Source: a virus. Taken from it: a DNA stretch of 49,781 nt. Below the pieces are notes generated by a model. The model ran no database searches. It was not told where the DNA came from and saw only the letters and a program-made list of their open reading frames with translations. A program made the position numbers and the translations under genes. The stretch lies in IMG/VR virus record IMGVR_UViG_3300027996_000051, positions 1 through 49,781 of that record. One strand, given 5' to 3'. Positions 31,375-47,350 of the stretch are shown here, in pieces; the stretch's first letter is position 1; every line of letters starts with the position of its first letter.

Positions 31375-32384
31375 ATTTGAATGAAGCTAGATTGAAACAA
31401 GCAGGTGTTAGAAGCTTAGGTGATATGAAACGTCAGGGATTAGTATCTGGAAAGGTAGATCCGAAGAAAGCTGTAAAAGGTCCAAAGGATATTGATTGTC
31501 TAATTAGACCTTGGCAGCGTGGTGATATGACCGGTATTCTAGCAGGTACAGGAGTAGGTAAGACTACGTTCGTTCTAAAACTATTAAAAGCGATTCTTCA
31601 AAATAATGCAGAAGGTGTAGTTGCATTTGTTTCACTGGAACTTGTAGCGGCGGAAATTGCTGAGAAATGGTTTAAAGCTACCGAAGATTGTCCAGAACTT
31701 GCGGATAGATTATATATAGTCGAAAACTTTGACGATGATGGAAACTGTTTAGATTTAACGGTGTCCGATATTGAAATAGAGCTTACGAAAATAAAAGATG
31801 TTCTCGGCACTACCATTCATGCTTATGCTCTAGATCATCTTCATGAGATATCGATTAAAGGCGGCAGCGTAGATTATAATCCTATCGTTAGAAAAGTTAA
31901 GAATATGACCGTAGCTTTAGATAGTCATGGGTTTATCTTATCTCAGACTACTAAAGGAAAAGGTATTGGTGATATTCCAGTTCCTAAAGATGGCTGTTAT
32001 GGCTGTAGTAAATATGAGAATTTAATGACGAATATTATTACGGTATTCCAACCCTTACGACGAGTAGAGAAAGAGTGTAACTTAGCTGTTACTGGATGGC
32101 AGTATGCAAAGATCCGCTATAAGAATAAAGGTGATGAATGTAAGGAAGGAATGAATTATCTATTGAGATATGATTTTGATTCGGAAGATTTAGTTAAGCT
32201 AGATACTAACGAACTTTCTACTTTCAAGATGTACTATGATAAAGTTCTAGAGCTTAGAAAAAATGAAGAAAAGTTTAAATCGTACCAATTTTGCCTTAGT
32301 ACTACAGTAGAAGGTAAGGACGGTAAAAGAGTAGAGATTTCTGAAGTGTTTGGAGGAGGGACTCCTGATGACGATGAAATCTGA
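31371..32384 (+). CDS. DnaB-like replicative helicase (RecA fold)
   Basis: 337 residues. Walker A GTGVGKTT at 60-67 (preceded by MTGILA), motif 1a around VSLELVAAEIAEKW (88-100), Walker B YALDHLHEIS with D155, and motif H3 ILSQTTKGKG (about 189-198). There is no primase domain; that is a separate gene at 34043. The C-terminal 29 residues (from LSTTVEGKDGK to the acidic GGGTPDDDEI) recur in the protein at 32883. The GGAGGAGGG in this tail also serves as ribosome site for the HNH endonuclease that follows. Confidence 0.85.
   Translation: MNLNEARLKQAGVRSLGDMKRQGLVSGKVDPKKAVKGPKDIDCLIRPWQRGDMTGILAGTGVGKTTFVLKLLKAILQNNAEGVVAFVSLELVAAEIAEKWFKATEDCPELADRLYIVENFDDDGNCLDLTVSDIEIELTKIKDVLGTTIHAYALDHLHEISIKGGSVDYNPIVRKVKNMTVALDSHGFILSQTTKGKGIGDIPVPKDGCYGCSKYENLMTNIITVFQPLRRVEKECNLAVTGWQYAKIRYKNKGDECKEGMNYLLRYDFDSEDLVKLDTNELSTFKMYYDKVLELRKNEEKFKSYQFCLSTTVEGKDGKRVEISEVFGGGTPDDDEI
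32295..32384 (+). repeat. Helicase 3'-end coding tail, copy A
   Basis: Codes for LSTTVEGKDGKRVEISEVF plus GGGTPDDDEI and the stop. Copy B is at 33105-33197. The proteins agree at 21 of 29 aligned residues, while many third codon positions differ, so the similarity is old or was kept by protein-level selection. Confidence 0.8.
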
Positions 32385-32886
32385 GATATGGAAAGATATC
32401 CAAGGATATGAAGGATTATACCAAGTAAGTAATCTTGGGAGAGTTAAGAGAGTAGAAGGTATTCAGTGTAGAAAAGATAGGATATTGAATCCGGCTACTC
32501 ATCGACAAGGTTATAAAAGAATTCGCATATCGAAACATGATTACGGTAAAAACTTCCTAGTTCATAGATTAGTAGCGTTGGCTTTTATAGATAATCCTGA
32601 GAATAAGTCATTTGTGAATCATATTAACGGAATTAAAGATGATAATAGGGTAGAGAATTTAGAATGGTCAACTTATTCGGAAAATAACCAACATGCTTAT
32701 GACAATAACTTGAATTCTAATAAGGGTACAAAAGGGTATAGAAGATTGAATAAAAAGCTTGTGCTTGAAATAAGATCATGGTATGCTGATGGTAATGTTT
32801 CTCAGAGCTTTATAGCTAGAGAAATGGGAGTATCTTTAACTACTATTAGCAGAGTTGTTAATAGAATTACATGGAGTCACATATGA
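32368..32886 (+). CDS. NUMOD4-HNH homing endonuclease 1
   Basis: About 172 residues (ATG at 32368; another ATG two codons later is equally possible). NUMOD4 segment EIWKDIQGYEGLYQVSNLGR, then HNH core VHRLVALAFIDNPENKSFVNH with INGIKDDNRVENLEWST, and a C-terminal helix-turn-helix (IAREMGVSLTTISRVVN). It is a homolog of the gene at 43672. It starts within the helicase tail and its stop overlaps the next ATG. As a free-standing HNH endonuclease it probably cuts alleles lacking it and spreads by repair. Confidence 0.9.
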   Translation: MTMKSEIWKDIQGYEGLYQVSNLGRVKRVEGIQCRKDRILNPATHRQGYKRIRISKHDYGKNFLVHRLVALAFIDNPENKSFVNHINGIKDDNRVENLEWSTYSENNQHAYDNNLNSNKGTKGYRRLNKKLVLEIRSWYADGNVSQSFIAREMGVSLTTISRVVNRITWSHI

Positions 32887-33197
32887 TAGATATTTATCAA
32901 TTTTACGATAATGGAAAAATCATACAAGAATTAGATATGTCAGATTATCAATGCTTTGCTATCAAAGGTAGAGTGTCTATTAACGAAGCTTGTGGCGGAT
33001 GTGTAGGGTGTATGTTAGAACAAGCAATGTACGGGGGGAATTGGCATGATTTTCATAACGAAGTCGTAGACGGCAAAAATATTATAAAACTAGTATATGT
33101 TGATCTATCTACTACAATAAAAGGTAAAGACGGTAAAACGGTTGTGCTTAACGAAGTATTCGGCGGCGGAACTCCAGACAGCGATGATGAAATATGA
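32883..33197 (+). CDS. Cys-rich protein carrying a second helicase-type tail
   Basis: 104 residues from the ATG at 32883 (GGAGTCACAT upstream; ATGA overlap with the endonuclease stop). N-terminal 70 residues contain CGGCVGCMLEQAMYGGNWHDF, a compact Cys motif. The last 30 residues (LSTTIKGKDGK to GGGTPDSDDEI) repeat the helicase C-terminus. It ends in ATGA with the next gene, an undisturbed junction. It is either a partner protein sharing an interaction tail with the helicase or a fusion of an unrelated gene with a displaced helicase tail. Confidence 0.65.
   Translation: MIDIYQFYDNGKIIQELDMSDYQCFAIKGRVSINEACGGCVGCMLEQAMYGGNWHDFHNEVVDGKNIIKLVYVDLSTTIKGKDGKTVVLNEVFGGGTPDSDDEI
33105..33197 (+). 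repeat. Helicase-type 3'-end coding tail, copy B
   Basis: Second copy of 32295-32384, one codon longer (Ser before DDEI). It directly overlaps the next start codon as ATGA, suggesting that this copy, not copy A, marks the ancestral operon junction. Confidence 0.75.
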
Positions 33198-33553: not shown

Positions 33554-33560
33554 GAGATTT

Positions 33561-33800: not shown

Positions 33801-33801
33801 A

Positions 33802-34041: not shown

Positions 34042-34042
34042 T

Positions 34043-35429: not shown

Positions 35430-35430
35430 T

Positions 35431-37722
35431 ATGAATAAAAACTATCATATAATTTCACATGATTTACAAATGGACGCAGCTTTTAAACATATAGAAGCTT
35501 ATGATTTTCACGGATTCGATACGGAAACTACCGGATTAAATACGAGAAAAGATAAGGTCATAGGTATGTCATTTAGCGGCGAAATAGGCACAGCGTTCTA
35601 TATCGTGCGTCATACTTGGTGTGCCGAAAAAGAGGAGCTTATAAGAGGCGTTTCTGAGGATCTATTTGTAAAAGCTTTAGAGATGATCGCTGAAAAAGAT
35701 CTGCTTATGTGGAACGCTAGTTATGATTGTCGAATCGTCAAGAGTAACTTTAAGATAGATTTAAAGCCGAGTTTAGCAGCAGATGTTATGCTTATGAAAC
35801 ATACGGTTGACGAAGATGCAAACTTTGCGTTAAAAAGAACTGCGATTGAATTACAAGAGTTCCTTGGACTAAACATGGAAAGAGCTGCCAATGAAGAGCA
35901 GGTAGCTATGAAAGCTAATGTTCTTAAGAACGGTGGTCAATGGAAATTAGCGCAGAAAGATATGTATATGGCTGATTTAGACGTTATGGGACCATATGCC
36001 TGTGCCGATGCAGATTTAACACTAAGAATCGGATTCTACTATTTAGATAAGATTCGAGAAGAAGAGTTAGAAGAGTTCTTCTTTGATAAAGAGGTAATGC
36101 CACTTTATCGTGAAGTTACGATTCCTATGGAAGAACATGGATTATGTTTGAACCTTCCTCAAATTGAACAAGCGAAAATAGATATTCAAGTCGATATAGA
36201 CATCCTAGAGAATCGGGTAATGCAGGAAATTTGTGCTACTGAGGATTTCTATAATTGGGAAACTGATAAAGCTGCTAGTAAGTATCCTGCAAAAAGTACT
36301 GGTAAATTCGGTCAAGCTTTTGTAGAGTTCTATAATATAGATTTACCTAAAACCAAAGCCGGTAAATATAGTATGTCGATGGGTACTTTGATAGATTCGG
36401 ATTGTGAGAAAAAACTCGCACTACTTTTTAATTGTTTTGATAGGATCGATAAAGATGATATCCTTCAAATTCAAAAAGATTTATACTTAGCTGATGAAAA
36501 GAATGTATTTAATATAAGCTCTAAAAAGCAACTTGGAGAGGTAGTGTTCGAATATATGGGAATTAAACCTTTATCGAAAACTCCAAAAGGTGCGCCAAAG
36601 TTTGACGATGATTTTATCGAACATCTTGGAACTTTAGACTTAACTTGGACAAAAGATTTATCGAACTATAATAAGCTGATAAAGATTCGTGGGACTTATA
36701 TCGATCGATTCTTAGATAATCATGAGGATGGATATTACTATGCGAGTTTTAAACAGCATGGAACTATATCAGGAAGATATGGGTCAGATTTACAGCAGCT
36801 ACCTAGACCGAAAGAAGAGGGTGAACTTGATGAAGTTGTTTTAAAGTATAATAATATTATTCGAGGATTCTTTATTGCAGGTGAAGGTCGTATGTTTGTT
36901 GACGATGATTATGAATCTTTAGAGCCGCATGTTTTTGCTCACGTTTCTGGAGATGAAGGTCTTAAGGATATTTTCCGTAAAGGTCACGATTTCTATTCAA
37001 CGATTGCAATTGCTACTGAAAAGATGGAAGGTGTTAGTGCGGACAAAAAGGCTGAGAACTATCTTGGAAAAGTTAATAAGCAAGTTAGGCAAGCAGCTAA
37101 AGCTTACTGCTTAGGAGTTCCTTACGGAATGACAGCGTTTGCACTAGGTAAAACTCTTGGAATTTCTACAGAAGAAGCTGAGGTACTTATAGAAGGGTAT
37201 CTATCAGGATTTCCGGAGCTTAGAAAATGGATGATCGAATCTGAACATAAGGCTCATACTTTTGGCTTTATCAGATCTGAGTCAGGTAGAGTTCGTCATT
37301 TGCCAAAAGTTAAAGCGTTATATGCAAAACATGGAACGAAGCTTCTAGATTGGAAATATCGTGCGAAACTAATCAAAAAGCATACGGCAAGATTAGGTAA
37401 AGAGGAAGCGAAAAAGCAGGTAGAGTCGGCATATAAAGATTATAAGAACGGTGTAAATAATGCGAAGAATTGGCAGATACAAAGTCTTGGGGCATCTATT
37501 GTAAATCTATCGGCAATAGCTATTAATCGTGAGTTTAAGAAAAGAGGGATTAACGCTTGGGTCGCACTACAGATCCATGATCAATTAGTTATGAATGTTC
37601 CAAAAGAAAAAGCTAAAGAATGTCAGAAATTAGTTCAAGAGATTATGGAAAATAATTATAAGTTAAGTATTAAATTGAAAGCTCCTGCGGAATTGGCTCT
37701 GAATTTACTTGACGGTCATTAA
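35431..37722 (+). CDS. polA: Family A DNA polymerase with 3'-5' exonuclease
   Basis: 763 residues, no 5'-nuclease domain. Exonuclease motifs: FDTETTGLN (D30, E32), NASYDC (D99) and YACADAD (189-195). Polymerase: GTISGRYGSDLQQLPR before motif A DDYESLE (D493, E498), O-helix RQAAKAYCLGVPYG (R553, K557, Y565) and motif C LQIHDQLV (D717). The residue equal to E. coli Phe762 is Leu561, and the Glu after the catalytic Asp of motif C is Gln718. The replicative polymerase of this phage, working with the primase and helicase upstream. Confidence 0.95.
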   Translation: MNKNYHIISHDLQMDAAFKHIEAYDFHGFDTETTGLNTRKDKVIGMSFSGEIGTAFYIVRHTWCAEKEELIRGVSEDLFVKALEMIAEKDLLMWNASYDCRIVKSNFKIDLKPSLAADVMLMKHTVDEDANFALKRTAIELQEFLGLNMERAANEEQVAMKANVLKNGGQWKLAQKDMYMADLDVMGPYACADADLTLRIGFYYLDKIREEELEEFFFDKEVMPLYREVTIPMEEHGLCLNLPQIEQAKIDIQVDIDILENRVMQEICATEDFYNWETDKAASKYPAKSTGKFGQAFVEFYNIDLPKTKAGKYSMSMGTLIDSDCEKKLALLFNCFDRIDKDDILQIQKDLYLADEKNVFNISSKKQLGEVVFEYMGIKPLSKTPKGAPKFDDDFIEHLGTLDLTWTKDLSNYNKLIKIRGTYIDRFLDNHEDGYYYASFKQHGTISGRYGSDLQQLPRPKEEGELDEVVLKYNNIIRGFFIAGEGRMFVDDDYESLEPHVFAHVSGDEGLKDIFRKGHDFYSTIAIATEKMEGVSADKKAENYLGKVNKQVRQAAKAYCLGVPYGMTAFALGKTLGISTEEAEVLIEGYLSGFPELRKWMIESEHKAHTFGFIRSESGRVRHLPKVKALYAKHGTKLLDWKYRAKLIKKHTARLGKEEAKKQVESAYKDYKNGVNNAKNWQIQSLGASIVNLSAIAINREFKKRGINAWVALQIHDQLVMNVPKEKAKECQKLVQEIMENNYKLSIKLKAPAELALNLLDGH

Positions 37723-37737
37723 AATATATGATAACAT
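37709..37737 (+). promoter_or_regulatory. Promoter overlapping the polymerase stop
   Basis: TTGACG, 17-bp spacer, TAACAT, then TAATTAAGG as in the early promoters. The -35 is in the last polymerase codons. It would start candidate RNA B and gene 37892. Confidence 0.6.
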
Positions 37738-37744
37738 TAATTAA

Positions 37745-37867
37745 GGCGTAACCTGTCTGTCAACGTCGAGAGAGTTTAATGGCTAACAGAGTCGCACTCA
37801 AAAGTGGTTGAGTATAGGATGTGTACGCATTAAGAACATGACAGTCTTTGACAGCTTGGAAAGACGG
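37745..37867 (+). ncRNA. Candidate structured RNA B / leader (related to 30912-31060)
   Basis: Begins at the expected transcription start of the promoter at 37709. CTGTCAA (37757-37763) can pair with TTGACAG (37848-37854), enclosing the hairpin ACTCAA-N6-TTGAGT (37796-37813). Blocks GGCGTAACCTGTCTGT, GAGAGTTTAATGGCTA and GACAGCTTGGAAAGACGG recur in RNA A. It ends just before the AGGAGG ribosome site of 37892, so it may be a regulatory leader or a released small RNA. Confidence 0.5.
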
Positions 37868-37891
37868 CTCTAAAACTTAGGAGGTTTTACT

Positions 37892-38113
37892 ATGAAAGCA
37901 TACATCAAGTATATTATTTTTTGTCCTAATAATTATCAAGGTGGATCTGGTTCTTACTTTGAACATTCTACAATGTTGGATTTAGATCCTGACCTAGAAT
38001 TTAGAGACTTACATGAGCTTATTGATGATAAAATTAGACCAATAATGGTAGAGAATTCTCACAATTGGCAAGGTGGTTCATATTCAATAAAACATATAGA
38101 GGTTCTACTGTGA
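37892..38113 (+). CDS. Unknown small protein
   Basis: 73 residues. NNYQGGSGSYFEHS and HNWQGGSYSIKHIEV are two related NxQGGS-Y halves, suggesting an internal repeat. TTAGGAGGTTTTACT ribosome site. It is preceded by candidate RNA B, and its end overlaps the first copy of a 27-bp repeat. Confidence 0.65.
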   Translation: MKAYIKYIIFCPNNYQGGSGSYFEHSTMLDLDPDLEFRDLHELIDDKIRPIMVENSHNWQGGSYSIKHIEVLL

Positions 38114-38135
38114 TAATTGTGGAAAAGTTTTTGAC
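38109..38135 (+). repeat. 27-bp direct repeat, copy 1 (decayed start of zinc-finger gene)
   Basis: TGTGATAATTGTGGAAAAG plus TTTTTGAC matches 38404-38430 at 25 of 27 positions. Read in the same frame it codes CDNCGKVFD and then stops, so it looks like a remnant of the zinc-finger start of 38398 without its ATG. Its end forms the -35 box of the promoter at 38131. Confidence 0.7.
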
Positions 38136-38159
38136 TTTTAATTATCTATCGAATATAAT
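38131..38159 (+). promoter_or_regulatory. Sigma70 promoter
   Basis: TTGACT, 17-bp spacer, TATAAT. The transcript would begin with a 7-bp hairpin (AGGAATT 38166-38172, AATTCCT 38186-38192) right at its 5' end, which could stabilise the mRNA, followed by TTAGGAGAATAA and the ATG at 38208. Confidence 0.75.
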
Positions 38160-38207
38160 ATTTATAGGAATTGTGTGTTATTATAAATTCCTCTATTAGG
38201 AGAATAA

Positions 38208-38408
38208 ATGGAATCTTTTATTACATTTGACGAAAATGGCAGGGCTACAATATCTTTTGAACTATGGAAGGCTCTTTTAAGAAATGCTAGAACTTCTCAA
38301 AAAGGTAGGCGAGGATTGAGTTCACGGAAAATTAGAGTCCAGAAAAAGATAGTTGCTAAGGAATTAGAAATCAGTATATTAAAAGGAATGTCTAAGAATG
38401 ACTTGTGA
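38208..38408 (+). CDS. Small basic protein in a repeat-bounded cassette
   Basis: 66 residues, basic C-terminal half (SSRKIRVQKKIVAKE), probably DNA or RNA binding. The gene and its own promoter lie between two copies of a 27-bp repeat. It overlaps the zinc-finger gene by 11 bases. Confidence 0.65.
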   Translation: MESFITFDENGRATISFELWKALLRNARTSQKGRRGLSSRKIRVQKKIVAKELEISILKGMSKNDL

Positions 38409-38520
38409 TAATTGCGGAAAAGATTTTGACGAACTTTCAACTTCAGGGTTGAATAACGGTAATAAAGACGACGGTTGGTATTGCGACGATTGTTATAAGG
38501 AAATTCATGAAGAAAAATGA
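38398..38520 (+). CDS. 40-residue zinc-finger protein
   Basis: MTCDNCGKDFDELSTSG then WYCDDCYKEI: two CxxC pairs about 26 residues apart, a zinc ribbon. Start overlaps 38208 and the end overlaps 38507. A decayed copy of its 5' end lies at 38109-38135. Confidence 0.65.
   Translation: MTCDNCGKDFDELSTSGLNNGNKDDGWYCDDCYKEIHEEK
38404..38430 (+). repeat. 27-bp direct repeat, copy 2
   Basis: Intact counterpart of 38109-38135, inside the zinc-finger gene (codons for CDNCGKDFD). Confidence 0.75.
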
Positions 38521-38911
38521 TTTTAAGGACAGATTTAAAGTAGGTGATATTATCAGAAGAGGTGGTCATATTAGATCAGGACAGCTTATGATAGTAGAAT
38601 CCTTCGACTCATCAAGAGGTTATTTTGATGACCGAGAAGCTTATACTTGTCAAGATTTGTTTAGAGATGGGCAAAAGTGGGGTGCGTATGAAGAAGATGA
38701 CTTTACTTTAGCTACAGATGATGACATAATATCTGAGATAGCTTCTAGAATGACTACAATGATAGATGTGGATACTTATTTTGGTAAATTAGAGCTTGAT
38801 ATTAATGATACAATGATATATGTTACTATTGACGATGGAACTATAATGTTAGATCCTAAATCAGCTATAAAGCTAAGAGACATTATTAACCAATACGTCG
38901 AGGAAGGTTAA
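38507..38911 (+). CDS. Unknown two-part acidic protein
   Basis: 134 residues. N-terminal beta part (FKVGDIIRRGGHIRSGQLMIV, SH3-like), then an acidic alpha/beta part (DDGTIMLDPKSAIKLRDIIN). Start lies in the end of the zinc-finger gene. No family is recognised. Confidence 0.65.
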   Translation: MKKNDFKDRFKVGDIIRRGGHIRSGQLMIVESFDSSRGYFDDREAYTCQDLFRDGQKWGAYEEDDFTLATDDDIISEIASRMTTMIDVDTYFGKLELDINDTMIYVTIDDGTIMLDPKSAIKLRDIINQYVEEG

Positions 38912-38912
38912 G

Positions 38913-39107
38913 ATGAAGAAAAGTGATTTTATAAAGAAAGTACTAAAGAGTCGTAAAAATACTGTGTTCGTAAATGAAGAACAAGTTTCCAATAGTTTAG
39001 AGATATTCGAATCTTTAGGGATGGTAGCTCCGGAAGTTTCGCCACTACCTCAAAGTGTTATAGATAACTGCGAAAGTGGTAATTATTGGGAGAATGAAGA
39101 TGAGTAA
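38913..39107 (+). CDS. Unknown small protein
   Basis: 64 residues, Lys-rich N-terminus, acidic C-terminus. AGGAAGGTTAAG precedes the ATG. It contains the only exact minus-strand GTAGTGGC copy that I found (39041-39048). Confidence 0.6.
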   Translation: MKKSDFIKKVLKSRKNTVFVNEEQVSNSLEIFESLGMVAPEVSPLPQSVIDNCESGNYWENEDE

Positions 39108-39564
39108 CTTGTACTATTCAATATTACGATTGTATCACTTTATAGAACGATTCTTATATTACGGATATCATGGAGCAAAGTATACCAGAGCATATGATGC
39201 AAGTGGCTCTCATAGCCTCATATATGCCCATATGAAGCGTGTAAAGAAATTCATGAACTCTGATAAGACTCATTTACTATGGAACGACAAGCCCGATACG
39301 AAGCTTATGAAGGTAATGGCGGAATTCACAGAATTAGCTCGTAGAATGAGTGAAAATGAGATGACGACTTATTATAACTATAATAAGTTTAAAGCTAAAT
39401 ATCCGGACTGTAATGATATTAGTAAATTATTCGGTGAAGATAGAGATCCATTAATGAGAAAAGAGATGAAGTTGGCGTTTAAAAAAGATCGCGCAATTAG
39501 TAAACAGTTAACTGATAGGTATTTTTACTTATTGGAAAATAAGATGGCGAGTTTTTGGGACTAG
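39100..39564 (+). CDS. Unknown conserved-looking phage protein
   Basis: 154 residues from MSNLYYSILRLYHFIERF; GGGAGAATGAAG decides this start. Helical, aromatic N-terminus, with recognisable blocks such as HSLIYAHMKRVKKFM and KLMKVMAEFTELARRM. Soluble. No name is recognised. Confidence 0.65.
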   Translation: MSNLYYSILRLYHFIERFLYYGYHGAKYTRAYDASGSHSLIYAHMKRVKKFMNSDKTHLLWNDKPDTKLMKVMAEFTELARRMSENEMTTYYNYNKFKAKYPDCNDISKLFGEDRDPLMRKEMKLAFKKDRAISKQLTDRYFYLLENKMASFWD

Positions 39565-39582
39565 TATACCCAAAAGGGTATA
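39565..39582. promoter_or_regulatory. Perfect 7-bp inverted repeat between genes
   Basis: TATACCC-AAAA-GGGTATA, directly after the TAG at 39564 and without a U run. The second arm runs into TATAAT (39579-39584) with a TTGGGA 18 bp upstream, so it could be an operator of a weak promoter or an mRNA processing hairpin. Confidence 0.45.
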
Positions 39583-39594
39583 ATGGGAGTTATA

Positions 39595-39816
39595 ATGAAT
39601 CAAAATAAGATTGACCTATTAGAAAATGAACTTACGGATTTTCTTCAAAAGCATCTACATTTAATCGGACTACAGTTTGAAATTAGCAAGAATTTAGCAA
39701 AGATTGACAAACCGGAAGATAGGATGTACTATTTAAGTATAGAGCTTATGGATAGCTTTTATTCACTGAAAGATGAGCTGAGTAACTTAGATGTTATGTT
39801 GAAGGAGTTAAAATGA
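39595..39816 (+). CDS. Unknown small helical protein
   Basis: 73 residues from MNQNKIDLLENEL. GGGAGTTATA directly precedes this ATG, so the ATG 12 bases upstream is less likely. Leu/Asp/Lys-rich helices. ATGA overlap downstream. Confidence 0.65.
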   Translation: MNQNKIDLLENELTDFLQKHLHLIGLQFEISKNLAKIDKPEDRMYYLSIELMDSFYSLKDELSNLDVMLKELK

Positions 39817-40013
39817 AAAAAGGATACTACACTATTGACAATTCCGATCTTTACTGGAGCTTTATTCCGAAATATAAAAGCGATACTTATATAAAAGGTA
39901 AGTTGACTTTATTTTATAAAAAAGGTACAATGAAAGGTGTTCCACTAGAAGAAAAGAATTACAAGTTATATTTAGATAAGATTCAACATTGGGAAAGATA
40001 TGAAGCAAGATAG
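39813..40013 (+). CDS. Unknown small basic protein
   Basis: 66 residues, Lys/Tyr-rich, beta-like. AAGGAGTTAAA ribosome site. It overlaps the metallophosphatase start by 14 bases. Confidence 0.65.
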   Translation: MKKGYYTIDNSDLYWSFIPKYKSDTYIKGKLTLFYKKGTMKGVPLEEKNYKLYLDKIQHWERYEAR

Positions 40014-40650
40014 AAAGTCTATATTTTTCACCTCAGATTGGCACATAGGTCACGCTAATTCGATAGTGTTTGATGATAGACCTTTCAAAGATCTGGATCA
40101 TATGCATCAAGTTTTGATTAATAACTATAATGCGGTAGTGCCGGAAGATGGGATCTGCTATCATTTGGGTGACGTAGGAATGGCTAATGTCGAAACTTTG
40201 TCAGGAGTGTTGTCGAAACTAAATGGAACTAAGGTTCTAGTTTTGGGTAATCATGATGGTAATGTGAACCGTATGTATAGACTAGGATTCGATGTAGTTT
40301 TATATGGAGCAACTTTATATATTGCCGGAGAAGAAGTTACCTTGACTCATTGTCCTCTTCGTGGTATATTTAGAGAAGACATTACTGGAATGAGAGGTGT
40401 GGTAGATGGAGATCTTTGGCATGGGGAACATAAGCAGATTAGATTCTCGACAGAAGATCGCGGACAGTTTCATCTTCACGGGCATATTCATAGTTCAAAG
40501 GCTAATGACAAGTTAACGAAAGATGGAAAACAATGGGATATCGGAGTTCCGGCAAACGATTACCGTCCAGTGAGTATAAGTAAAGTAGAATCATGGATAT
40601 CAAAATATAAACAAAAGGAAAAAGATGAACTTACAGCTAGTAGTAGATAG
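40000..40650 (+). CDS. Calcineurin-like metallophosphatase 1
   Basis: 216 residues. Metal-binding motifs in order: FTSDWHIGH (D-x-H), YHLGDVG (GD), LVLGNHD (GNHD), LTHCPL (H) and HLHGHIHSS (GHxH). All ligands are present, so it should hydrolyse phosphoesters with two metal ions. Phage members may act as 2',3'-cyclic or nucleotide phosphodiesterases; substrate unknown. One of three metallophosphatases in the window. Confidence 0.88.
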   Translation: MKQDRKSIFFTSDWHIGHANSIVFDDRPFKDLDHMHQVLINNYNAVVPEDGICYHLGDVGMANVETLSGVLSKLNGTKVLVLGNHDGNVNRMYRLGFDVVLYGATLYIAGEEVTLTHCPLRGIFREDITGMRGVVDGDLWHGEHKQIRFSTEDRGQFHLHGHIHSSKANDKLTKDGKQWDIGVPANDYRPVSISKVESWISKYKQKEKDELTASSR

Positions 40651-40984
40651 TGGGAAGAATTTTAAAAGAAGATCTAGTGGAATGTGGCTTAAGACTGTAG
40701 ACGGTAAAATTATTACTACCGAAGCTATGTTAACCTACCAAATGAATACCGATGACATTTTAGCTGATGATTGGGAAATTGAAGAGGATAAGCCTACTAG
40801 TTTGGAATTATCTGATGATATTTTAAGAGATTGTAGAATACAGTTAATGAATAACCATTTACATGGTACTTATATATGTACTACTGACTACGGAGTTAAT
40901 CTAAAAGAAAAAGATATTGACAAAATTTTAACTTTCCTATATAATAACACTGAGATCGGCAAAAGTCGCATTACACCGTTTTAA
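40625..40984 (+). CDS. Possible Tad2-like (DUF2829) protein with C-terminal extension
   Basis: 119 residues. GKNFKRRSSGMWLKTVDGK, then ITTEAMLTYQMNTDDILADDWEI resembles the C-terminal half of DUF2829/Tad2, where an MW-L--K--DG segment is followed by PSQ-D-LA-DWEI. Tad2 proteins sequester the Thoeris signal molecule. The N-terminal part is short and there is an unrelated C-terminal domain of about 60 residues, so this is a tentative call. AAAAGGAAAAAG ribosome site. Confidence 0.45.
   Translation: MNLQLVVDSGKNFKRRSSGMWLKTVDGKIITTEAMLTYQMNTDDILADDWEIEEDKPTSLELSDDILRDCRIQLMNNHLHGTYICTTDYGVNLKEKDIDKILTFLYNNTEIGKSRITPF
40917..40945 (+). promoter_or_regulatory. Perfect sigma70 promoter before the envelope cluster
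   Basis: TTGACA (40917-40922), 17-bp spacer, TATAAT (40940-40945), both consensus, in the last codons of 40625. It is placed to drive the signal-peptide and membrane genes 40992-42248. Confidence 0.65.
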
Positions 40985-40991
40985 GGATCAT

Positions 40992-41144
40992 ATGAAAAAA
41001 CTATTAGAATGGCTGTTATCATTTTTTGCTTCGAAAGAAGAGAAAAAGGCAGTAGAAAGAATTGAGAAGTTGAAACAAGAATTAAAGGAGATACGAGATG
41101 AGAATCCTAGCGATGATGATATTCTTGATCACTTTAATAAGTAG
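40992..41144 (+). CDS. Small protein with amphipathic N-terminus and coiled coil
   Basis: 50 residues. MKKLLEWLLSFFASKEE then a Lys/Glu heptad helix and an acidic end. It overlaps the next signal-peptide gene by 47 bases in another frame. First gene of the envelope cluster; a small membrane-active or lysis-related peptide is possible. Confidence 0.5.
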   Translation: MKKLLEWLLSFFASKEEKKAVERIEKLKQELKEIRDENPSDDDILDHFNK

Positions 41145-41286
41145 TGGCGAAGTTTTGGCTCAAAGTCTAAATAAGATGATCTGCGAAAATGTCGGACCGT
41201 CAATAACTAGATGTAGCAACAAAGAAGTTATATGTTACGTTAGAAATAACGGCGGAGTCTTTTGTAAATTCAAGGAGAAGAAATGA
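41098..41286 (+). CDS. Small exported Cys-rich protein
   Basis: 62 residues. Signal peptide (MRILAMMIFLITLISSGEVLAQ, likely cleaved after LA) followed by about 40 residues with four Cys that can form two disulfides. AAAGGAGATACGAG ribosome site. The start lies within the previous gene, like nested lysis genes. Function unknown. Confidence 0.65.
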   Translation: MRILAMMIFLITLISSGEVLAQSLNKMICENVGPSITRCSNKEVICYVRNNGGVFCKFKEKK

Positions 41287-41609
41287 AGAATTTAGTGGTA
41301 ATGATATTATTGACCGCTTTAATGACTAGTTGTAATATAGTTACAGATAATACTGGAAAATGCTTCTCGATGATTTCTGATAAGTATAACGATCCGAGGT
41401 ATTATCTAGTATTTAACAGTGATGATGATTTTATATTCTGGGATAGTATATATGATGTTTACGGACCTTTATCCAAACTGTATATCTTTGGGACGGAAAT
41501 ACCTTGTCCTGAAAAACTACATATAAGACCATCGCTAAAAAATGACTTAAACAGACATGGAGTTTATGATGAAATTAGTAAGTTTATTAATATTAGTACT
41601 GATTACTAA
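41283..41609 (+). CDS. Lipoprotein
   Basis: 108 residues. Lipobox LMTSC (Cys 17), then a soluble domain with two Cys (GKCFS and IPCPE). ATGA overlap upstream; the end overlaps the next signal-peptide gene by 41 bases. In a lysis context it could be an outer-membrane spanin component; superinfection exclusion is the alternative. Confidence 0.65.
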   Translation: MKNLVVMILLTALMTSCNIVTDNTGKCFSMISDKYNDPRYYLVFNSDDDFIFWDSIYDVYGPLSKLYIFGTEIPCPEKLHIRPSLKNDLNRHGVYDEISKFINISTDY

Positions 41610-41916
41610 TACAGCATTTGCTCAAAATGCGGCACTACTTAATAAAGGTGATTCAGCTCCATTTAAGGGAGTCTTATTAACCTCTGAGAGGGCTGAGAAA
41701 GCCATGAAAGCTGAGAAGGCGAACATAGTATTAAAAGATCTTCAAGTGGCTCAGGAAGAGCTTACAGAGTATCATAGACAAGCGGCTAGGATAGCTAGGA
41801 CAGAGCTTTCAAAGGCTCAATTCAGCGGATTCTGGGCTAATACTGGCTTTTTCGCTCTAGGAGTCATATTAACAGGGTTTGCATTTAAAGTTAATCAAAA
41901 AATAAGCGATCTGTAA
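41569..41916 (+). CDS. Exported protein with C-terminal membrane anchor, lysis-associated type
   Basis: 115 residues from the ATG with GGAGTTTATG upstream. Signal peptide (LVSLLILVLITNTAFAQ), then NKGDSAPFKGVLLTSERAEK, a pattern I know from lysis-region proteins of Gram-negative phages, a heptad helix, and a C-terminal hydrophobic helix (FFALGVILTGFAF). It could span the periplasm between membranes in the manner of a spanin. The pattern is recalled, not searched. Confidence 0.6.
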   Translation: MKLVSLLILVLITNTAFAQNAALLNKGDSAPFKGVLLTSERAEKAMKAEKANIVLKDLQVAQEELTEYHRQAARIARTELSKAQFSGFWANTGFFALGVILTGFAFKVNQKISDL

Positions 41917-41957
41917 AACAGAGAGTGTATGAGGCGATAGCCGAAAGGAGATATTTA

Positions 41958-42248
41958 ATGGTAGGATTAGGAATTTTAACGATAAGTCTTTTTATAGCAC
42001 TTTTGTTTGCGGCTTATAAATATGAGCAATTAGAGGCTGATAATGAGCTATATGATAATCTTTTGGAAGATTGTAATGATAGAGAGGATGATTTAGAGGC
42101 TAGGATCATAGATTTACAAGAAACTATCGATAAAGCTATGGAAGGCGGTATGCGACTAGTTATAGAAAATATAGAGCTTAATAATACTATCAATATGCTT
42201 GCAGAAGCAGAAGTAGCGGCACTTTATCCGGAGGAAGTTAATGAGTAA
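41958..42248 (+). CDS. Inner-membrane spanin-like protein (Rz type)
   Basis: 96 residues from the ATG behind AAAGGAGATATTTA (the longer GTG start is rejected). One N-terminal hydrophobic helix (about 2-22), then a long acidic coiled coil. This is the topology of an Rz-type i-spanin. It follows lipoprotein and exported genes, as in spanin loci. No holin or endolysin was found beside it. Confidence 0.55.
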   Translation: MVGLGILTISLFIALLFAAYKYEQLEADNELYDNLLEDCNDREDDLEARIIDLQETIDKAMEGGMRLVIENIELNNTINMLAEAEVAALYPEEVNE

Positions 42249-42513
42249 AAAAGAAAAACTACTAGAGATTATTGAGCAGATTCAAGAACTTTATCCGAAG
42301 CTTAATAGGTTGATGGTTACTGATATGGATGATCCAGAATCGATTATAATTACTACGGAAGAGAACCTTATTAGTATGGCTGAAGAGTACGGATTAGATC
42401 CAGAAATGATTGAGCAGTTTTCTGAAGAGGATTTACAAGACCCTTTAGATGAATACTTAGCTCAGATTGATTGGGACGATGATGACGATGAAGGTGGAGG
42501 AATGTTGCAATGA
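42241..42513 (+). CDS. Acidic protein
   Basis: 90 residues, extremely acidic, C-terminal IDWDDDDDEGGGMLQ. It overlaps the spanin-like gene by 8 bases and the metallophosphatase gene as ATGA. No family is recognised. Confidence 0.65.
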   Translation: MSKKEKLLEIIEQIQELYPKLNRLMVTDMDDPESIIITTEENLISMAEEYGLDPEMIEQFSEEDLQDPLDEYLAQIDWDDDDDEGGGMLQ

Positions 42514-43187
42514 AGATTGTTTGTATTTCCGACACTCATTGTAGATTGCGGCATATTGCTGTAGATCTTCATGAAGGTGACGTTTTGATTCATGCAGGAG
42601 ATGCTTTAAGTCAAGGTACTTTTTCTGAATGGGGTGCATTTATTAAAGAGTTTGCGGCACTACCTCATAAACATAAGATATATGTCCCGGGAAATCATGA
42701 TAGAATTACTGAACTTGATGAAGATTTAGTTAAAAAAGATTGCGCAAAAGTAGGTGTTATCTATCTAAATAATACTGGTATAGAGATCGAAGGGAAGTAT
42801 TTCTATGGAAGTGCTATTACTCCGAGATTTCATAATTGGGCTTGGAATAGGGACTCTGGTAACTGTGGAACCTCATACGAGTCAGATCATCCGGACTACC
42901 AAGATATCGCTCCATATTGGGGTGCTATTCCTGAGAAGACTGATGTTTTGATTACTCACGGACCTCCTCAAGGGATTATGGATATTTCTATTTATGATAA
43001 GGTAGAGTGCGGATGTCCTATATTGCGACATAGAGTTCATGAAGTAGATCCGACTTATCATATATTTGGTCATATTCATAATTGGCATGGTATTGAAGTA
43101 GTAGGATCGACAACTTTTATAAATGCATCGTCTTGTGATGAAAAATATAGAGCAGTAAATACACCTATAACAGTGGAGTTAAAATGA
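42510..43187 (+). CDS. Calcineurin-like metallophosphatase 2
   Basis: 225 residues. CISDTHC (D-x-H), LIHAGDALS (GD), YVPGNHDRI (GNHD), LITHGPPQG and HIFGHIHNWHG (GHxH) are complete. The ITHGPPQGI and FGHIH blocks resemble the UPF0046/MPPED-type phosphodiesterases. Substrate unknown. ATGA overlaps on both sides. Confidence 0.9.
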   Translation: MKIVCISDTHCRLRHIAVDLHEGDVLIHAGDALSQGTFSEWGAFIKEFAALPHKHKIYVPGNHDRITELDEDLVKKDCAKVGVIYLNNTGIEIEGKYFYGSAITPRFHNWAWNRDSGNCGTSYESDHPDYQDIAPYWGAIPEKTDVLITHGPPQGIMDISIYDKVECGCPILRHRVHEVDPTYHIFGHIHNWHGIEVVGSTTFINASSCDEKYRAVNTPITVELK

Positions 43188-43438
43188 ACAATAAGATAAT
43201 AGATTATGAAGAAGCTGTAAAACAGTTAAATCTACTTTCAGCAGTTCAAGGGTTCATGAAGCAATTAAAATGTATAACAGTGGAAGATCAAAGAGTCACA
43301 CGAGAGAATATTAGAGTTCGACGAAAAGAGATTAATCTACTATTGTCAATTATTGCGTCGGAAAAGAAGGCTAGGAAGTTATATGGAAGGTTGATATCTA
43401 TTTCGGGAGTTAGTTCTACGAAAAGAGGACCTAAATGA
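43184..43438 (+). CDS. Unknown small basic protein
   Basis: 84 residues, basic and helical, ending STKRGPK. ATGA overlaps with the metallophosphatase gene and the next gene. Confidence 0.6.
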   Translation: MNNKIIDYEEAVKQLNLLSAVQGFMKQLKCITVEDQRVTRENIRVRRKEINLLLSIIASEKKARKLYGRLISISGVSSTKRGPK

Positions 43439-43671
43439 TAAAAATATTAGAAGGTGGGCATTGGGAGAAAAAGGGTTACAATTATACCTTATTTTTGACA
43501 CTACCAAGTTATTCTAGTAATAAAGTTAGAAGTATTGCAGGATCTGAGTTGGTGTCAAAAAGACTTGAAGCTAATACTGGATTTATTATAGTTAGTAATA
43601 GTATTTATTGTAATATATCTATCATGGTATTAGGTTTTGGTATAGGATTAGAAATCCATAGTAGAGGATGA
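43435..43671 (+). CDS. Small beta-rich protein with duplicated 3' end
   Basis: 78 residues, beta-rich (GYNYTLFLTLPSYSS, GFIIVSNSIYCNIS), function unknown. Its last 23 codons (SIYCNISIMVLGFGIGLEIH and on) recur downstream of the HNH gene at 44222-44299 as SIYCNIVIKLLGFGMGLEIH. The upstream copy is the one now in frame with the gene body, so the gene seems to have been completed by a tail that came with the endonuclease gene. Confidence 0.7.
   Translation: MIKILEGGHWEKKGYNYTLFLTLPSYSSNKVRSIAGSELVSKRLEANTGFIIVSNSIYCNISIMVLGFGIGLEIHSRG
43600..43671 (+). repeat. 3'-end coding tail, copy A (before HNH 2)
   Basis: 24 codons including the stop. Against copy B the protein agrees at 18 of the first 22 residues while most third codon positions differ. 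Confidence 0.85.
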
Positions 43672-44220
43672 ATGAAAGAGATTTGGAAAGATATAATAGG
43701 ATATGAAGGTTATTATCAAGTTAGTAATTTAGGTAGAGTTAGAAGTTTAGATAGAACTATAAGTCACGGGAAAGGTGAGTCTAAAAGAAGAGTAGAAGGT
43801 AAAATGATATCTCAAATAAATACTATGGGATATCTAGCAGTAGGTTTAAGTATGAAAGGAAAGGGTAAGTTCGTAAAAGTTCATAGACTTGTAGCAGGAG
43901 CGTTTATATCAAATCCAGAAAATAAACCTTGTGTAAACCATAAAGATAGAGATAGGGCTAATAATAAATTAGACAATTTAGAATGGTGTACTTATAGAGA
44001 TAATATGTTGCATATACATGAAACTGGTGCTAATATGTGTAAGGGGGAGGATCATAAGATGACTACTTTAACATCTTCTCAGGTTTTAGAGATAAAGCTG
44101 AGTTTGCGTAGTGGGGAAACTGGCACATCTCTAGCAGAGAAGTTTGATGTGTCAAGTGCAACTATAAGTAGAATAAAAACAGGAAAAGTTTGGAATTCTA
44201 TAAAAATAGTTGACAATTAG
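43672..44220 (+). CDS. NUMOD4-HNH homing endonuclease 2
   Basis: 182 residues. NUMOD4 EIWKDIIGYEGYYQVSNLGR, HNH core VHRLVAGAFISNPENKPCVNH with KLDNLEWCTYRDN, and C-terminal helix-turn-helix (LAEKFDVSSATISRIK). It follows the stop of 43671 without a gap and ends two bases before tail copy B. Homologous to the gene at 32368 over its whole length, but clearly diverged, so these are two members of one family rather than a recent copy. Confidence 0.9.
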   Translation: MKEIWKDIIGYEGYYQVSNLGRVRSLDRTISHGKGESKRRVEGKMISQINTMGYLAVGLSMKGKGKFVKVHRLVAGAFISNPENKPCVNHKDRDRANNKLDNLEWCTYRDNMLHIHETGANMCKGEDHKMTTLTSSQVLEIKLSLRSGETGTSLAEKFDVSSATISRIKTGKVWNSIKIVDN

Positions 44221-44238
44221 ATCTATTTATTGTAACAT
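44210..44238 (+). promoter_or_regulatory. Promoter at the end of HNH 2
   Basis: TTGACA, 17-bp spacer, TAACAT. The -35 lies in the last HNH codons and the -10 in tail copy B. It restores transcription of the metallophosphatase gene at 44296 after the insertion. Confidence 0.65.
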
Positions 44239-44299
44239 AGTAATTAAGCTACTCGGATTTGGGATGGGCTTAGAAATACATTCAAGGAGATTTAAATGA
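44222..44299 (+). pseudogene. Stranded 3'-end tail, copy B (gene remnant)
   Basis: Reads SIYCNIVIKLLGFGMGLEIH, SRRFK and stop in one frame. It is cut off from any gene body: a TAG at 44207 closes the frame upstream. Its stop overlaps the ATG at 44296 as ATGA and it carries that gene's AAGGAG ribosome site, so this copy is the original 3' end of the gene now ending at 43671. Confidence 0.8.
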
Positions 44300-45012
44300 G
44301 TAACGAGGTTGAAAACAGTAGAGTATTGGTTATTTCCGATCTTCATATTCCATATGAGCATCAAGATGTAGTCTCATTTTTAAAAGAAGTGAAAAGAGTA
44401 TATAAGCCGGATAGAGTAATTTGTATTGGAGATGAAGTTGATAAACACGCGATGAGTTTCCATGATTCTGATCCAGATTTGCCAAGTGCCGGTGATGAAT
44501 TAGAAGAAGCTATCGAAAAGTTACAGCCTATTTATAAGCTCTTTCCGGTGGTTGATTTGGTAGATTCAAACCACGGATCGATGGTGTATCGTAAAGGGAA
44601 GCACCACGGAATTCCACGGAAATACCTAAGAGATTACGGTGAAGTTCTAGATGCTCCTGTAGGTTGGCAATGGCACAATGATTTGAAGATTACTTTATCT
44701 GATGGTCAAAGAGTTTACTTTCATCATGGATTAGCTTCTGATGGGCAAAAGGTAGCGCAAAGACTCGGCATAAACTTTATTCAAGGTCACTTTCATAATT
44801 CATTCGAAATTAAATATACAGGTACTCCAGATAAGTTACTTTGGAATATGACGATAGGATGTTTAATCGATGATAAAGCTTTAGCATTTGCTTATAATAA
44901 AACGACTCTAGGGAGACCTCTAATAGGTCTAGGAATAATTTTAGATGGTCAACCAATGTTGATACCTATGATTTTAGATCAAGATGGTAGGTGGATTGGA
45001 GAGCTTAAGTAA
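44296..45012 (+). CDS. Calcineurin-like metallophosphatase 3
   Basis: 238 residues. VISDLHIPY (D-x-H), CIGDEVD (GDE), VDSNHGSM (NH), FHHGLASDG and FIQGHFHNS (GHxH) are present; this arrangement resembles the MRE11-like or phage-type metallophosphatases. It probably hydrolyses a phosphodiester; substrate unknown. Start overlaps the stranded tail, TAATG downstream. Confidence 0.85.
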   Translation: MSNEVENSRVLVISDLHIPYEHQDVVSFLKEVKRVYKPDRVICIGDEVDKHAMSFHDSDPDLPSAGDELEEAIEKLQPIYKLFPVVDLVDSNHGSMVYRKGKHHGIPRKYLRDYGEVLDAPVGWQWHNDLKITLSDGQRVYFHHGLASDGQKVAQRLGINFIQGHFHNSFEIKYTGTPDKLLWNMTIGCLIDDKALAFAYNKTTLGRPLIGLGIILDGQPMLIPMILDQDGRWIGELK

Positions 45013-45371
45013 TGGCTACAAAAAAACCGAGATATCCTACATCAATCCCATTTCACTACATGGGTTTTGATTGGGAGATTAAATTCATAGATATAGAAGC
45101 TACCGACTTTGGAGAAACAGACTCCGATCAAAAAGAAGTTAGAATCTATTATAAAAATAGAACTGAACAGAATGTTATTGAAACTTTACTTCACGAATTA
45201 TGTCATGTGGTAATGTTCGAATTAGCTGATTCTGTCTTTCACTTCGAAAAAGAAAAGGTTTATGAGAAAGAGGAGAACTTAATTCGATTGACTTCTCCTA
45301 GAGCTTTTGCTATAATAAGAGATAATCCAGATTTGGTGGATTTTGTAATAAAAAGAGTTAGGAGTTTATAA
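45012..45371 (+). CDS. HExxH metalloprotein (SprT/ImmA-like)
   Basis: 119 residues. LLHELCHVV gives HExxH at H61-E62-H65 in a helix following a beta strand (VRIYYKNR) and an acidic segment, as in small phage SprT-like or ImmA/IrrE-like putative peptidases. A third ligand is not certain. TAATG overlaps on both sides. Confidence 0.7.
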   Translation: MATKKPRYPTSIPFHYMGFDWEIKFIDIEATDFGETDSDQKEVRIYYKNRTEQNVIETLLHELCHVVMFELADSVFHFEKEKVYEKEENLIRLTSPRAFAIIRDNPDLVDFVIKRVRSL

Positions 45372-45652
45372 TGAAATGCGTAGTAACACATGAAGAAACG
45401 AGTAATCATACAAATGGAATTCCCCTATCAAAAAAAGGTAGAGATATTCTAGTAGAAATTATAAACGCTCATAATGAAAAGGTAGCCGATTTTTTTGTAG
45501 AAAAGACTAAAGCTGACAATCCTGAAGCAGCTTTTACAGATGAAGGTCTTAGAAGATTTGCTCCAAAGATAAATAAAAGACAGGCGTTAAACTTGCTAAA
45601 AATTAAAGAGTCAGATATAATGGAAACTAGAGCTGAAGTTTTGGAGGAATAA
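45371..45652 (+). CDS. Unknown small protein
   Basis: 93 residues. CVVTHEETSNHTNGIPLSKKG, a beginning like a degenerate zinc-binding or knuckle motif, then helical Lys/Glu-rich. TAATG overlaps. No family is recognised. Confidence 0.6.
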   Translation: MKCVVTHEETSNHTNGIPLSKKGRDILVEIINAHNEKVADFFVEKTKADNPEAAFTDEGLRRFAPKINKRQALNLLKIKESDIMETRAEVLEE

Positions 45653-46517: not shown

Positions 46518-46877
46518 GTGAGTAAGGGAGTCCATCTGAAATCTAAAAAAGGCGATAAAGTGAAAGAACCGAAATCAGCAGAAGTTGCAAAACTGAAGAA
46601 GCGTATAAGGTTACTAGAAAAGCAGAAGAAAGATCTAGTTTCGCAGTTAAAATCTGCTGAAAAAGCCTTAGAGCGTAATATGAAATTCCTAAAAGGTTCC
46701 GTAGAAGATATATCTGTCGAAGAGCTGATTGAAGCGGCGAAAGAAGATAAAACATTGAAGGAAGTTAAAGTGGAAAAAGAGTGTCCGAATTGTGGAAGTA
46801 AAAATTTAAAAGTCATGAACATTTTAGGTGGAAAGATTGAGATCTGTCCTGATTGTTCTCATCGAGGTAAATTGTAG
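46518..46877 (+). CDS. Coiled-coil zinc-ribbon protein, start uncertain
   Basis: Up to 119 residues from GTG at 46518, without a clear ribosome site. A promoter-like TTGACT-N17-TAACCT (46488-46516) just upstream would place the transcript start after this GTG, so a GTG near 46560 may be used instead. Heptad helix in the middle (LKKRIRLLEKQKKDLVSQLK) and a C-terminal zinc ribbon (CPNCGS, CPDCS). TAGTG overlap with the next gene. Confidence 0.6.
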   Translation: MSKGVHLKSKKGDKVKEPKSAEVAKLKKRIRLLEKQKKDLVSQLKSAEKALERNMKFLKGSVEDISVEELIEAAKEDKTLKEVKVEKECPNCGSKNLKVMNILGGKIEICPDCSHRGKL

Positions 46878-47350
46878 TGGCGAAAAAGAAAGGTCGTAAA
46901 CCTACTACTGGTAGAAAAACTACGAAACGAGATATATTTGAAGATCCTATAAAGTTAAAAGGTAGAGTCCTAACTTTAATGAGAGCTGATTTTAAGAAGT
47001 CTCCGATGTATGCTGCTGCTAAGAAGAGTTCCTTTTTAGGACAATCTATATACCAGTGTCCCTTATGTATGGTGATGGTCTATACAGGAGTTAGTGATAA
47101 GAACTACGAGAAGCTTAAATTAGAGCATCCTAAGTTACAACGAGGAAAAGAGTCTAAGATGTTCAATCTGGATCATGTAGAGCCTATAGTACCTTATGAT
47201 CGGGCTACAAAAGACATGTCCTTGGATGAACTTGCTCCTAGAGTATATTGCCATGAAGATAATATGCAATATATTTGTAAAGAGTGTCATAAGATTAAAA
47301 GCGCACATGAATCGGGATTAAGAAAAGAAGAGAGGAAGAAGAAAAAATAG
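46877..47350 (+). CDS. HNH nuclease
   Basis: 157 residues, GTG start overlapping the upstream TAG. Basic N-terminus (KKKGRKPTTGRKTTKRD). HNH fold: CPLC, then FNLDHVEPIVPYD with the His-metal segment, N in EDNMQ and CKECHKIK. The zinc knuckle CxxC...CxxC and DHVEPIV resemble phage-type HNH enzymes, but it has no NUMOD modules, so it differs from the two homing endonucleases. A free-standing nicking or processing nuclease is likely. Confidence 0.8.
   Translation: MAKKKGRKPTTGRKTTKRDIFEDPIKLKGRVLTLMRADFKKSPMYAAAKKSSFLGQSIYQCPLCMVMVYTGVSDKNYEKLKLEHPKLQRGKESKMFNLDHVEPIVPYDRATKDMSLDELAPRVYCHEDNMQYICKECHKIKSAHESGLRKEERKKKK

What the first reader, a model, noticed from the sequence alone, without database searches (positions are those of the whole stretch)
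43600..44299. HNH endonuclease inserted with a replacement copy of its host gene's 3' end
The 78-residue gene 43435-43671 ends in SIYCNISIMVLGFGIGLEIH. After the NUMOD4-HNH gene the same coding end occurs again (44222-44299, SIYCNIVIKLLGFGMGLEIH), detached from any gene body but still fused by ATGA overlap and AAGGAG to the next gene. The simplest story is that the endonuclease arrived with its own version of the target's 3' end, completed the interrupted gene, and left the old end stranded. The two ends differ mostly at third codon positions, so the site could be resistant to the endonuclease while the protein is kept. From memory, comparable tail-replacing endonuclease insertions are known in fungal mitochondrial genes (Allomyces atp6); I do not know a clear phage description.
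Basis: partly seen in the sequence, partly recalled or inferred. Interest (0 to 1): 0.88.

Follow-up and report, generated by a model that had tools for sequence, protein, structure and literature searches.

The report
Phage nuclease swaps gene's tail
A selfish DNA-cutting gene sits in a phage genome between a replacement copy of its host gene's tail (upstream) and the original tail left stranded behind it; the same arrangement turned up at other genes and in other phages, so it looks like a recurrent way for such elements to invade genes without breaking them.

Summary
The 78-aa gene (43435-43671) ends in copy A. A NUMOD4-HNH endonuclease gene (43672-44220) follows with no gap, then a second coding end (copy B). 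Copy B reaches further upstream than reported, to 44210, overlapping the last HNH codons. Endonuclease-free relatives carry one uninterrupted gene with a single tail, two of them running straight into the same metallophosphoesterase (L003, L006). Copy B is the native end by junction and residues; copy A is the intruder. A second phage (L167) has an HNH gene at the same site with a decayed copy B. The window's other NUMOD4-HNH gene (32350-32886) did the same to a DnaB-like helicase gene, and two unrelated viral contigs (L110, L135) show it at exonuclease genes. L135 is clearest: against an endonuclease-free phage the gene is ~92% identical for 139 codons, then ~50% to its end, then HNH, then a stranded tail matching 41/42 bases. 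Stranded tails at this locus keep a sigma70-type promoter (TTGACA-N17-TAAYAT) that copy A lost. The anatomy matches fungal mitochondrial tail-replacing endonucleases; I found no phage description in the open-access papers searched. Cleavage and resistance are untested.

The parts
43435..43572 (+). native body of the 78-aa host gene (codons 1-46)
   Evidence: 42/46 residues and 78% of bases identical to endonuclease-free L001
43573..43671 (+). copy A: replacement 3' end of the host gene (codons 47 to stop; left boundary approximate)
   Evidence: identity to L001 falls to 22/32 residues (Fisher p=0.007 against body plus copy B); lacks the promoter -35 found in native tails
43672..44220 (+). NUMOD4-HNH endonuclease gene, 182 aa
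   Evidence: Pfam NUMOD4 5.5e-15 and HNH_3 6.9e-8; PHROG 59 HNH endonuclease 1.8e-54
44210..44299 (+). copy B: stranded native 3' end of the host gene
   Evidence: aligns with the tails of endonuclease-free relatives; a blastn match with L006 runs from the tail into the next gene (44258-45347, 75.7%)
44210..44238 (+). putative sigma70-type promoter TTGACA-N17-TAACAT inside copy B
   Evidence: same element in L001, L002, L003, L006 tails and in the decayed L167 relic; -35 absent from both copy A tails; strict pattern enriched in the window, 8 against 0.69 expected
44284..44289 (+). ribosome-binding site AAGGAG for the next gene, inside copy B
   Evidence: sequence
44296..45012 (+). downstream metallophosphoesterase gene, native neighbour of copy B
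   Evidence: PHROG 221 2.2e-60; directly follows the single tail in L003 and L006
31371..32291 (+). native body of the DnaB-like helicase gene, host of the second insertion
   Evidence: Pfam DnaB_C 2.7e-7; 92% aa identity to endonuclease-free L168
32292..32384 (+). second case, copy A: replacement tail of the helicase gene
   Evidence: 68% aa identity to L168 against 92% for the body (nt Fisher p=2e-4); C replaces the D conserved in four relatives
32350..32886 (+). second NUMOD4-HNH endonuclease gene
   Evidence: Pfam NUMOD4 3.9e-15, HNH_3 1.1e-9
33102..33197 (+). second case, copy B: stranded native helicase tail, now the C-terminus of ORF 32871-33197
   Evidence: DLSTTIKGKDGKTVVLNEVFGGGTPDSDDEI; 79% aa and 77% nt identity to L168 tail

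Best explanation
This is a free-standing HNH homing-endonuclease gene that invaded the 3' end of a phage gene together with the donor's version of that 3' end. The foreign tail (copy A) joins in frame to the native body, so the host gene stays whole as a hybrid. The endonuclease gene follows directly, and the original tail (copy B) is left stranded behind it, no longer translated with the gene but still carrying the promoter and ribosome-binding site of the next gene. Most likely mechanism (inferred): the enzyme breaks the native tail; the upstream broken end invades the homologous donor gene and copies its 3' part plus the adjacent endonuclease gene; the downstream end, lacking homology, is joined by a short or illegitimate junction. 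If so, the start of copy B marks roughly where the native gene was cut. Divergence between donor and native tails would then protect the occupied site. Shown by sequence: hybrid gene, direction (B native, A foreign), empty sites, recurrence at other genes. Inferred: cleavage, cut position, repair route, resistance, promoter use.
For: Empty sites with a single tail in four relatives. The body and copy B both match L001 at 91% of residues, copy A at 69% (p=0.007). Homology with L006 runs unbroken from copy B into the next gene. L167 has an HNH gene at the same position with a relic tail that aligns better to endonuclease-free L002 (72.5) than to its own upstream tail (55.5) and contains in-frame stops. 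The second HNH gene in the window sits between two helicase tails, with single-tail relatives L168-L171. L110 has the same anatomy at an exonuclease gene, with single-tail relatives L174-L176; its A and B differ at 19 sites, 15 of them third positions. L135 against endonuclease-free prophage phiEG37K: ~92% nt identity for codons 1-139, 43-70% for the rest of the gene, then HNH, then a stranded 42-base tail 41/42 identical (copy A 29/42, p=7e-4) continuing into 95% identical downstream DNA. No Rfam intron at these loci.
Against: At this locus a site-by-site test does not by itself show B closer than A to relatives (B:A support L001 11:6, L002 9:7, L005 4:9, L006 5:7); direction here rests on residues, junction and the relic. 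The donor of copy A was not found. No cleavage data exist. The left boundary is sharp only in L135; in the window it is a drop around codon 47 and not precisely placed. In the helicase case about 220 extra bases lie between HNH and copy B, so that event was not a simple single insertion or was modified later. A common ancestral insertion with L167 cannot be told from two homing events.
Confidence: 0.83

Rival explanations
1. Local duplication: the endonuclease or its repair duplicated the gene's own 3' end (a long target-site duplication) and the two copies then drifted apart.
For: It would give the same order A-HNH-B without a foreign donor (anatomy).
Against: Drift of a stranded, untranslated copy should not keep 82% of residues while differences pile up at third positions (39 of 65 pooled, p=1e-5; L110 15 of 19, p=6e-5). 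In L135 the body diverges abruptly from codon 140 while the stranded tail stays 41/42 identical to the endonuclease-free phage, so A came from outside.
Confidence: 0.07
2. Copy B is a separate small expressed gene (TTG start at 44210, 29 aa) and its resemblance to the host gene's end is paralogy.
For: An open frame from TTG 44210 to 44299 exists.
Against: No such separate gene in four endonuclease-free relatives; the equivalent in L167 has in-frame stops; copy B has no gene body of its own.
Confidence: 0.03
3. The HNH gene lies in a self-splicing intron, copy B being the downstream exon and copy A an alternative in-intron tail.
For: HNH genes often reside in phage group I introns (for example PMC7344957).
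Against: No Rfam intron match in the window even at E up to 1 for 31000-45600; the HNH ORF abuts copy A with zero bases and overlaps copy B, leaving no room for a ribozyme core.
Confidence: 0.04
4. The endonuclease gene was carried in passively: ordinary recombination between diverged phages swapped a block, and the endonuclease had no part in it.
For: Phage genomes are mosaics (established knowledge); cleavage by these enzymes was not tested.
Against: The tail duplication is repeatedly centred on an HNH gene at unrelated loci, with the breakpoint at or close behind the HNH 3' end in most cases. Homologous exchange on both sides would not leave a second tail. Caveat: non-nuclease genes were not scanned as a control.
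Confidence: 0.1

Closest known systems
Tail-replacing mobile endonuclease ORFs of fungal mitochondria (Allomyces macrogynus atp6; Glomus atp6, atp9, cox2, nad3; PMC3630166)
   Same: Foreign C-terminal coding end attached in frame to the host gene, endonuclease ORF next, native end stranded downstream; the native end matches relatives better than the inserted one; protein conserved while DNA differs.
   Different: LAGLIDADG or GIY-YIG enzymes in mitochondria; here NUMOD4-HNH in phages, with phage operon signals. A promoter in the stranded tail was not reported in the passages I read.
Free-standing phage homing endonucleases (T4 mob/seg, lactococcal Skunavirus HNH; PMC2988022, PMC12724721)
   Same: Endonuclease genes next to conserved phage genes, presence/absence polymorphism between relatives, co-conversion of flanks.
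   Different: Described as lying between genes; the passages read do not describe a replacement tail plus a stranded native tail.
mobE inside nrdA of phage Aeh1 (listed in PMC2988022; details from memory)
   Same: HNH endonuclease gene inserted within a phage coding sequence.
   Different: There the host gene is split into two expressed pieces (from memory); here the host gene is completed by a foreign tail and the old tail is not needed.

Membership tests
NUMOD4-HNH (HNH_3) homing endonuclease family | NUMOD4 and HNH_3 domains | tested here: met
   Pfam scores above curated cut-offs for both window HNH proteins and L167
NUMOD4-HNH (HNH_3) homing endonuclease family | presence/absence at a fixed site among relatives | tested here: met
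   absent in L001, L002, L003, L006; present in window and L167
NUMOD4-HNH (HNH_3) homing endonuclease family | site-specific cleavage of the empty allele and super-Mendelian inheritance | not testable with these tools
   needs enzyme and phage crosses
Tail-replacing mobile endonuclease ORF (fungal mitochondrial type) | C-terminal coding end of the host gene present on both sides of the endonuclease ORF | tested here: met
Tail-replacing mobile endonuclease ORF (fungal mitochondrial type) | downstream end is native, upstream end foreign | tested here: met
   decisive in L135; supported at this locus by residues, junction and relic, though the site-by-site test alone is inconclusive
Tail-replacing mobile endonuclease ORF (fungal mitochondrial type) | hybrid gene transcribed with the inserted tail, native tail not used | not testable with these tools
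   no RNA data; stops in the L167 relic agree
Tail-replacing mobile endonuclease ORF (fungal mitochondrial type) | LAGLIDADG or GIY-YIG endonuclease in a mitochondrial genome | tested here: not met
   HNH enzyme in a phage: works like that kind, is not a member of it
Group I intron with endonuclease ORF | intron core RNA between the exons | tested here: not met
   no Rfam match; no space between the ORFs

The most novel reading that the evidence does not exclude
Phages harbour a general class of tail-replacing homing endonucleases. They enter the 3' ends of conserved genes (helicase, DNA-repair exonuclease, perhaps terminase) by one-sided homologous repair, make hybrid host proteins, leave a stranded native tail whose start records the cut site, and in compact phages that tail survives because it is the promoter and leader of the next gene.
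Probability: 0.55. Interest if true: 0.74.

Novelty: new variant of a known kind. Interest (0 to 1): 0.66.

Why it matters
It shows how a nuclease gene can land inside a coding sequence of a compact phage genome without an intron or intein and without breaking the gene. It gives a sequence signature (duplicated tail flanking an endonuclease gene) that can be searched for and that may point to the cut site of each enzyme. It also means that 3' ends of phage genes next to HNH genes can be of foreign origin, which matters for phage phylogenies and annotation. The fungal mitochondrial version has been known since 1994; finding it in phages would make the mechanism testable in fast-growing laboratory systems.

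Tried and rejected
Phage (INPHARED) and plasmid collections hold no relative of the 78-aa gene. The site-by-site test of B against A closeness was inconclusive at this locus and at L110. Copy A tails of window and L167 are not more alike (17/32) than other pairs, so no shared donor can be claimed. A genome-contig scan plus 8 phage regions gave 29 further HNH loci with no convincing tail duplication (the best scores, L354 and L356, look like composition or ribosome-site similarity). L262 (terminase large subunit, ERHLLSDGFFTF*/ERNLMNDTFFTF*) looks like another case, but its score (48) is inside the null range and no close empty-site relative was found. Intron reading rejected. No structure prediction was run; it would not bear on the question.

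Full report
Observation. The 78-aa gene 43435-43671 ends in ...SIYCNISIMVLGFGIGLEIHSRG*. The HNH gene starts immediately after it (43672), and a second version of the same end occurs behind it, joined to the next gene by ATGA and AAGGAG. Searching the record with the 78-aa protein finds the second copy at E=6.5e-8; the DNA alignment of the two ends scores 63 against a shuffled maximum of 43.5. Copy B starts at TTG 44210, not 44222: TTGACA aligns with the Leu-Thr codons of relatives, and the HNH frame reads through it in another phase to its stop at 44218-44220.

Empty sites. The window is an IMG/VR virus record. Its relatives L001, L002, L003/L005 and L006/L166 have no HNH gene here and carry one intact gene with one tail. 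In L003 and L006 the tail runs straight into the metallophosphoesterase gene that follows copy B in the window, and blastn aligns L006 with the window without a break from copy B into that gene (44258-45347). L001 and L002 have other genes after the tail.

Which copy is native. Against L001 the body matches at 42/46 residues, copy B at 20/22 and copy A with its preceding codons at 22/32 (Fisher p=0.007). Copy B shares NIVIKLLGFG with L001; copy A has S, M and V where L001, L002 and L003 have V, K/R/S and L. A site-by-site count is not decisive (B:A 11:6 for L001, others mixed), so at this locus the direction rests on residues, the junction and the relic described next.

A second phage. L167 (62,966-bp record) has a homologous gene followed at the same position by an HNH gene 45% identical in protein, and behind it a decayed tail ending GFGIGLEIQSKS* with in-frame stops. 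The relic aligns better with endonuclease-free L002 (72.5) than with L167's own upstream tail (55.5). Copy B is therefore not maintained as a gene.

The same window holds a second case. The other NUMOD4-HNH gene (32350-32886) follows a DnaB-like helicase gene whose end (...CLSTTVEGKDGKRVEISEVFGGGTPDDDEI) recurs at 33102-33197 (DLSTTIKGKDGKTVVLNEVFGGGTPDSDDEI). Four endonuclease-free relatives (L168-L171) have one tail and the conserved D that copy B keeps and copy A lost. The body is 83% identical in DNA to L168, copy A 65%, copy B 77%. About 220 bases of unrelated coding sequence lie between HNH and copy B, so the stranded tail is now the C-terminus of a 108-aa ORF; no relative of that extra part was found in the loci held.

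Other phages. Of 149 distinct NUMOD4/HNH ORFs in fetched viral contigs, the upstream end recurs downstream clearly in both window cases, L167 and L110, and more weakly in L135 and L262. L110 lies at the end of a gene matching the C-terminus of a DNA-repair exonuclease family (phrog_704): copy B GFLHHKEFGQVARLTHLFK equals that stretch of the single tail of L175/L176, copy A does not, and A and B differ at 19 sites, 15 of them third positions. L135 is decisive: compared with the endonuclease-free Enterococcus gallinarum prophage phiEG37K (LC625742, L361), its gene is about 92% identical in DNA for 139 codons, then 43-70% to the stop; after the HNH gene comes a 42-base tail 41/42 identical to phiEG37K (copy A 29/42) and 95% identical DNA beyond. 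There the foreign part is some 268 codons of the host gene plus the HNH gene, and the HNH frame ends inside the native tail. L258 and L294 show a duplicated gene start instead, possibly a mirror image. Twenty-nine further loci from bacterial genomes and phage records gave no case, so the pattern is a minority (about 3%) among such genes.

Mechanism. A-B divergence concentrated at third positions (39 of 65 pooled, p=1e-5) means both tails spent most of their history under protein selection, as expected for orthologs from two phages and not for a local duplication followed by drift. The L135 boundary means that the HNH gene and the 3' part of the donor gene came in as one tract. I infer a break in the native tail, invasion of the donor gene by the upstream end, copying through the donor's 3' end and HNH gene, and a non-homologous or short-homology join on the other side. 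Such one-sided repair leaves exactly A-HNH-B, and the start of B approximates the cut. Resistance of A would follow from divergence. None of these steps was assayed.

What the stranded tail still does. All native tails and both stranded ones contain TTGAC(A/T)-N17-TAA(T/C)AT (window 44210-44238, L001 5154, L002 5154, L003 871, L006 4903, L167 5774); both copy A tails lack the -35 (ATAGTT, ATCGTA). The L167 relic keeps the element although its frame is destroyed. The strict pattern TTGACA-N16-18-TAWWWT occurs 8 times in the window against 0.69 expected, and others sit in gene 3' ends, such as 40917, conserved in L001, L002 and L006. So copy B probably survives as promoter and leader of the metallophosphoesterase gene. 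This is inference from sequence.

Known relatives. PMC3630166 describes the same anatomy in fungal mitochondria (Glomus atp6, atp9, cox2, nad3; Allomyces atp6 as first case), with LAGLIDADG or GIY-YIG enzymes, the native end closer to relatives, and hybrid transcripts. The phage papers searched (PMC2988022, PMC12724721, PMC10448857, PMC7344957) do not describe it in the passages read. The library holds open-access papers only, so a description in a subscription journal may exist. Verdict: new variant of a known kind, well supported in anatomy and history, untested in enzymology.

Noticed in passing
window 32871-33197: 108-aa ORF made of an unrelated 70-odd-residue part (MIDIYQFYDNG...) fused in frame to the stranded helicase tail; no relative of the new part in the loci held.
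   Followed up: partly
L258 1782-2766 and L294 1775-2806: HNH genes flanked by two copies of a gene's start rather than its end: possible mirror-image, head-replacing insertions.
   Followed up: partly
L262 1500-2310: HNH gene after a terminase large-subunit gene, with a possible 13-codon tail duplication (ERHLLSDGFFTF* / ERNLMNDTFFTF*); no close empty-site relative found.
   Followed up: partly
window 16008, 17759, 19584, 19858, 20715, 23174, 34848, 40917, 47351: Series of near-consensus TTGACA-N17-TATAAT promoters, several with a similar leader (such as AAACAAACAAGGAG) before small ORFs; some lie inside the 3' ends of upstream genes.
   Followed up: partly
L001 5239-5634; L002 5239-6480; window 44296: Different genes follow the same tail in different relatives, so the site just behind this gene is a spot of gene turnover.
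   Followed up: no
window 46877-47350: ORF with cysteine pairs and an HNH-like stretch (CPLC...LDHVEPIVPYD...CKEC), with apparent homologues in L002 and L005: a different HNH-type protein that seems fixed in the family.
   Followed up: no
L002 8389-8985: NUMOD4-HNH gene placed between a promoter and the gene homologous to window 46518-46877: another insertion site in this phage family.
   Followed up: no
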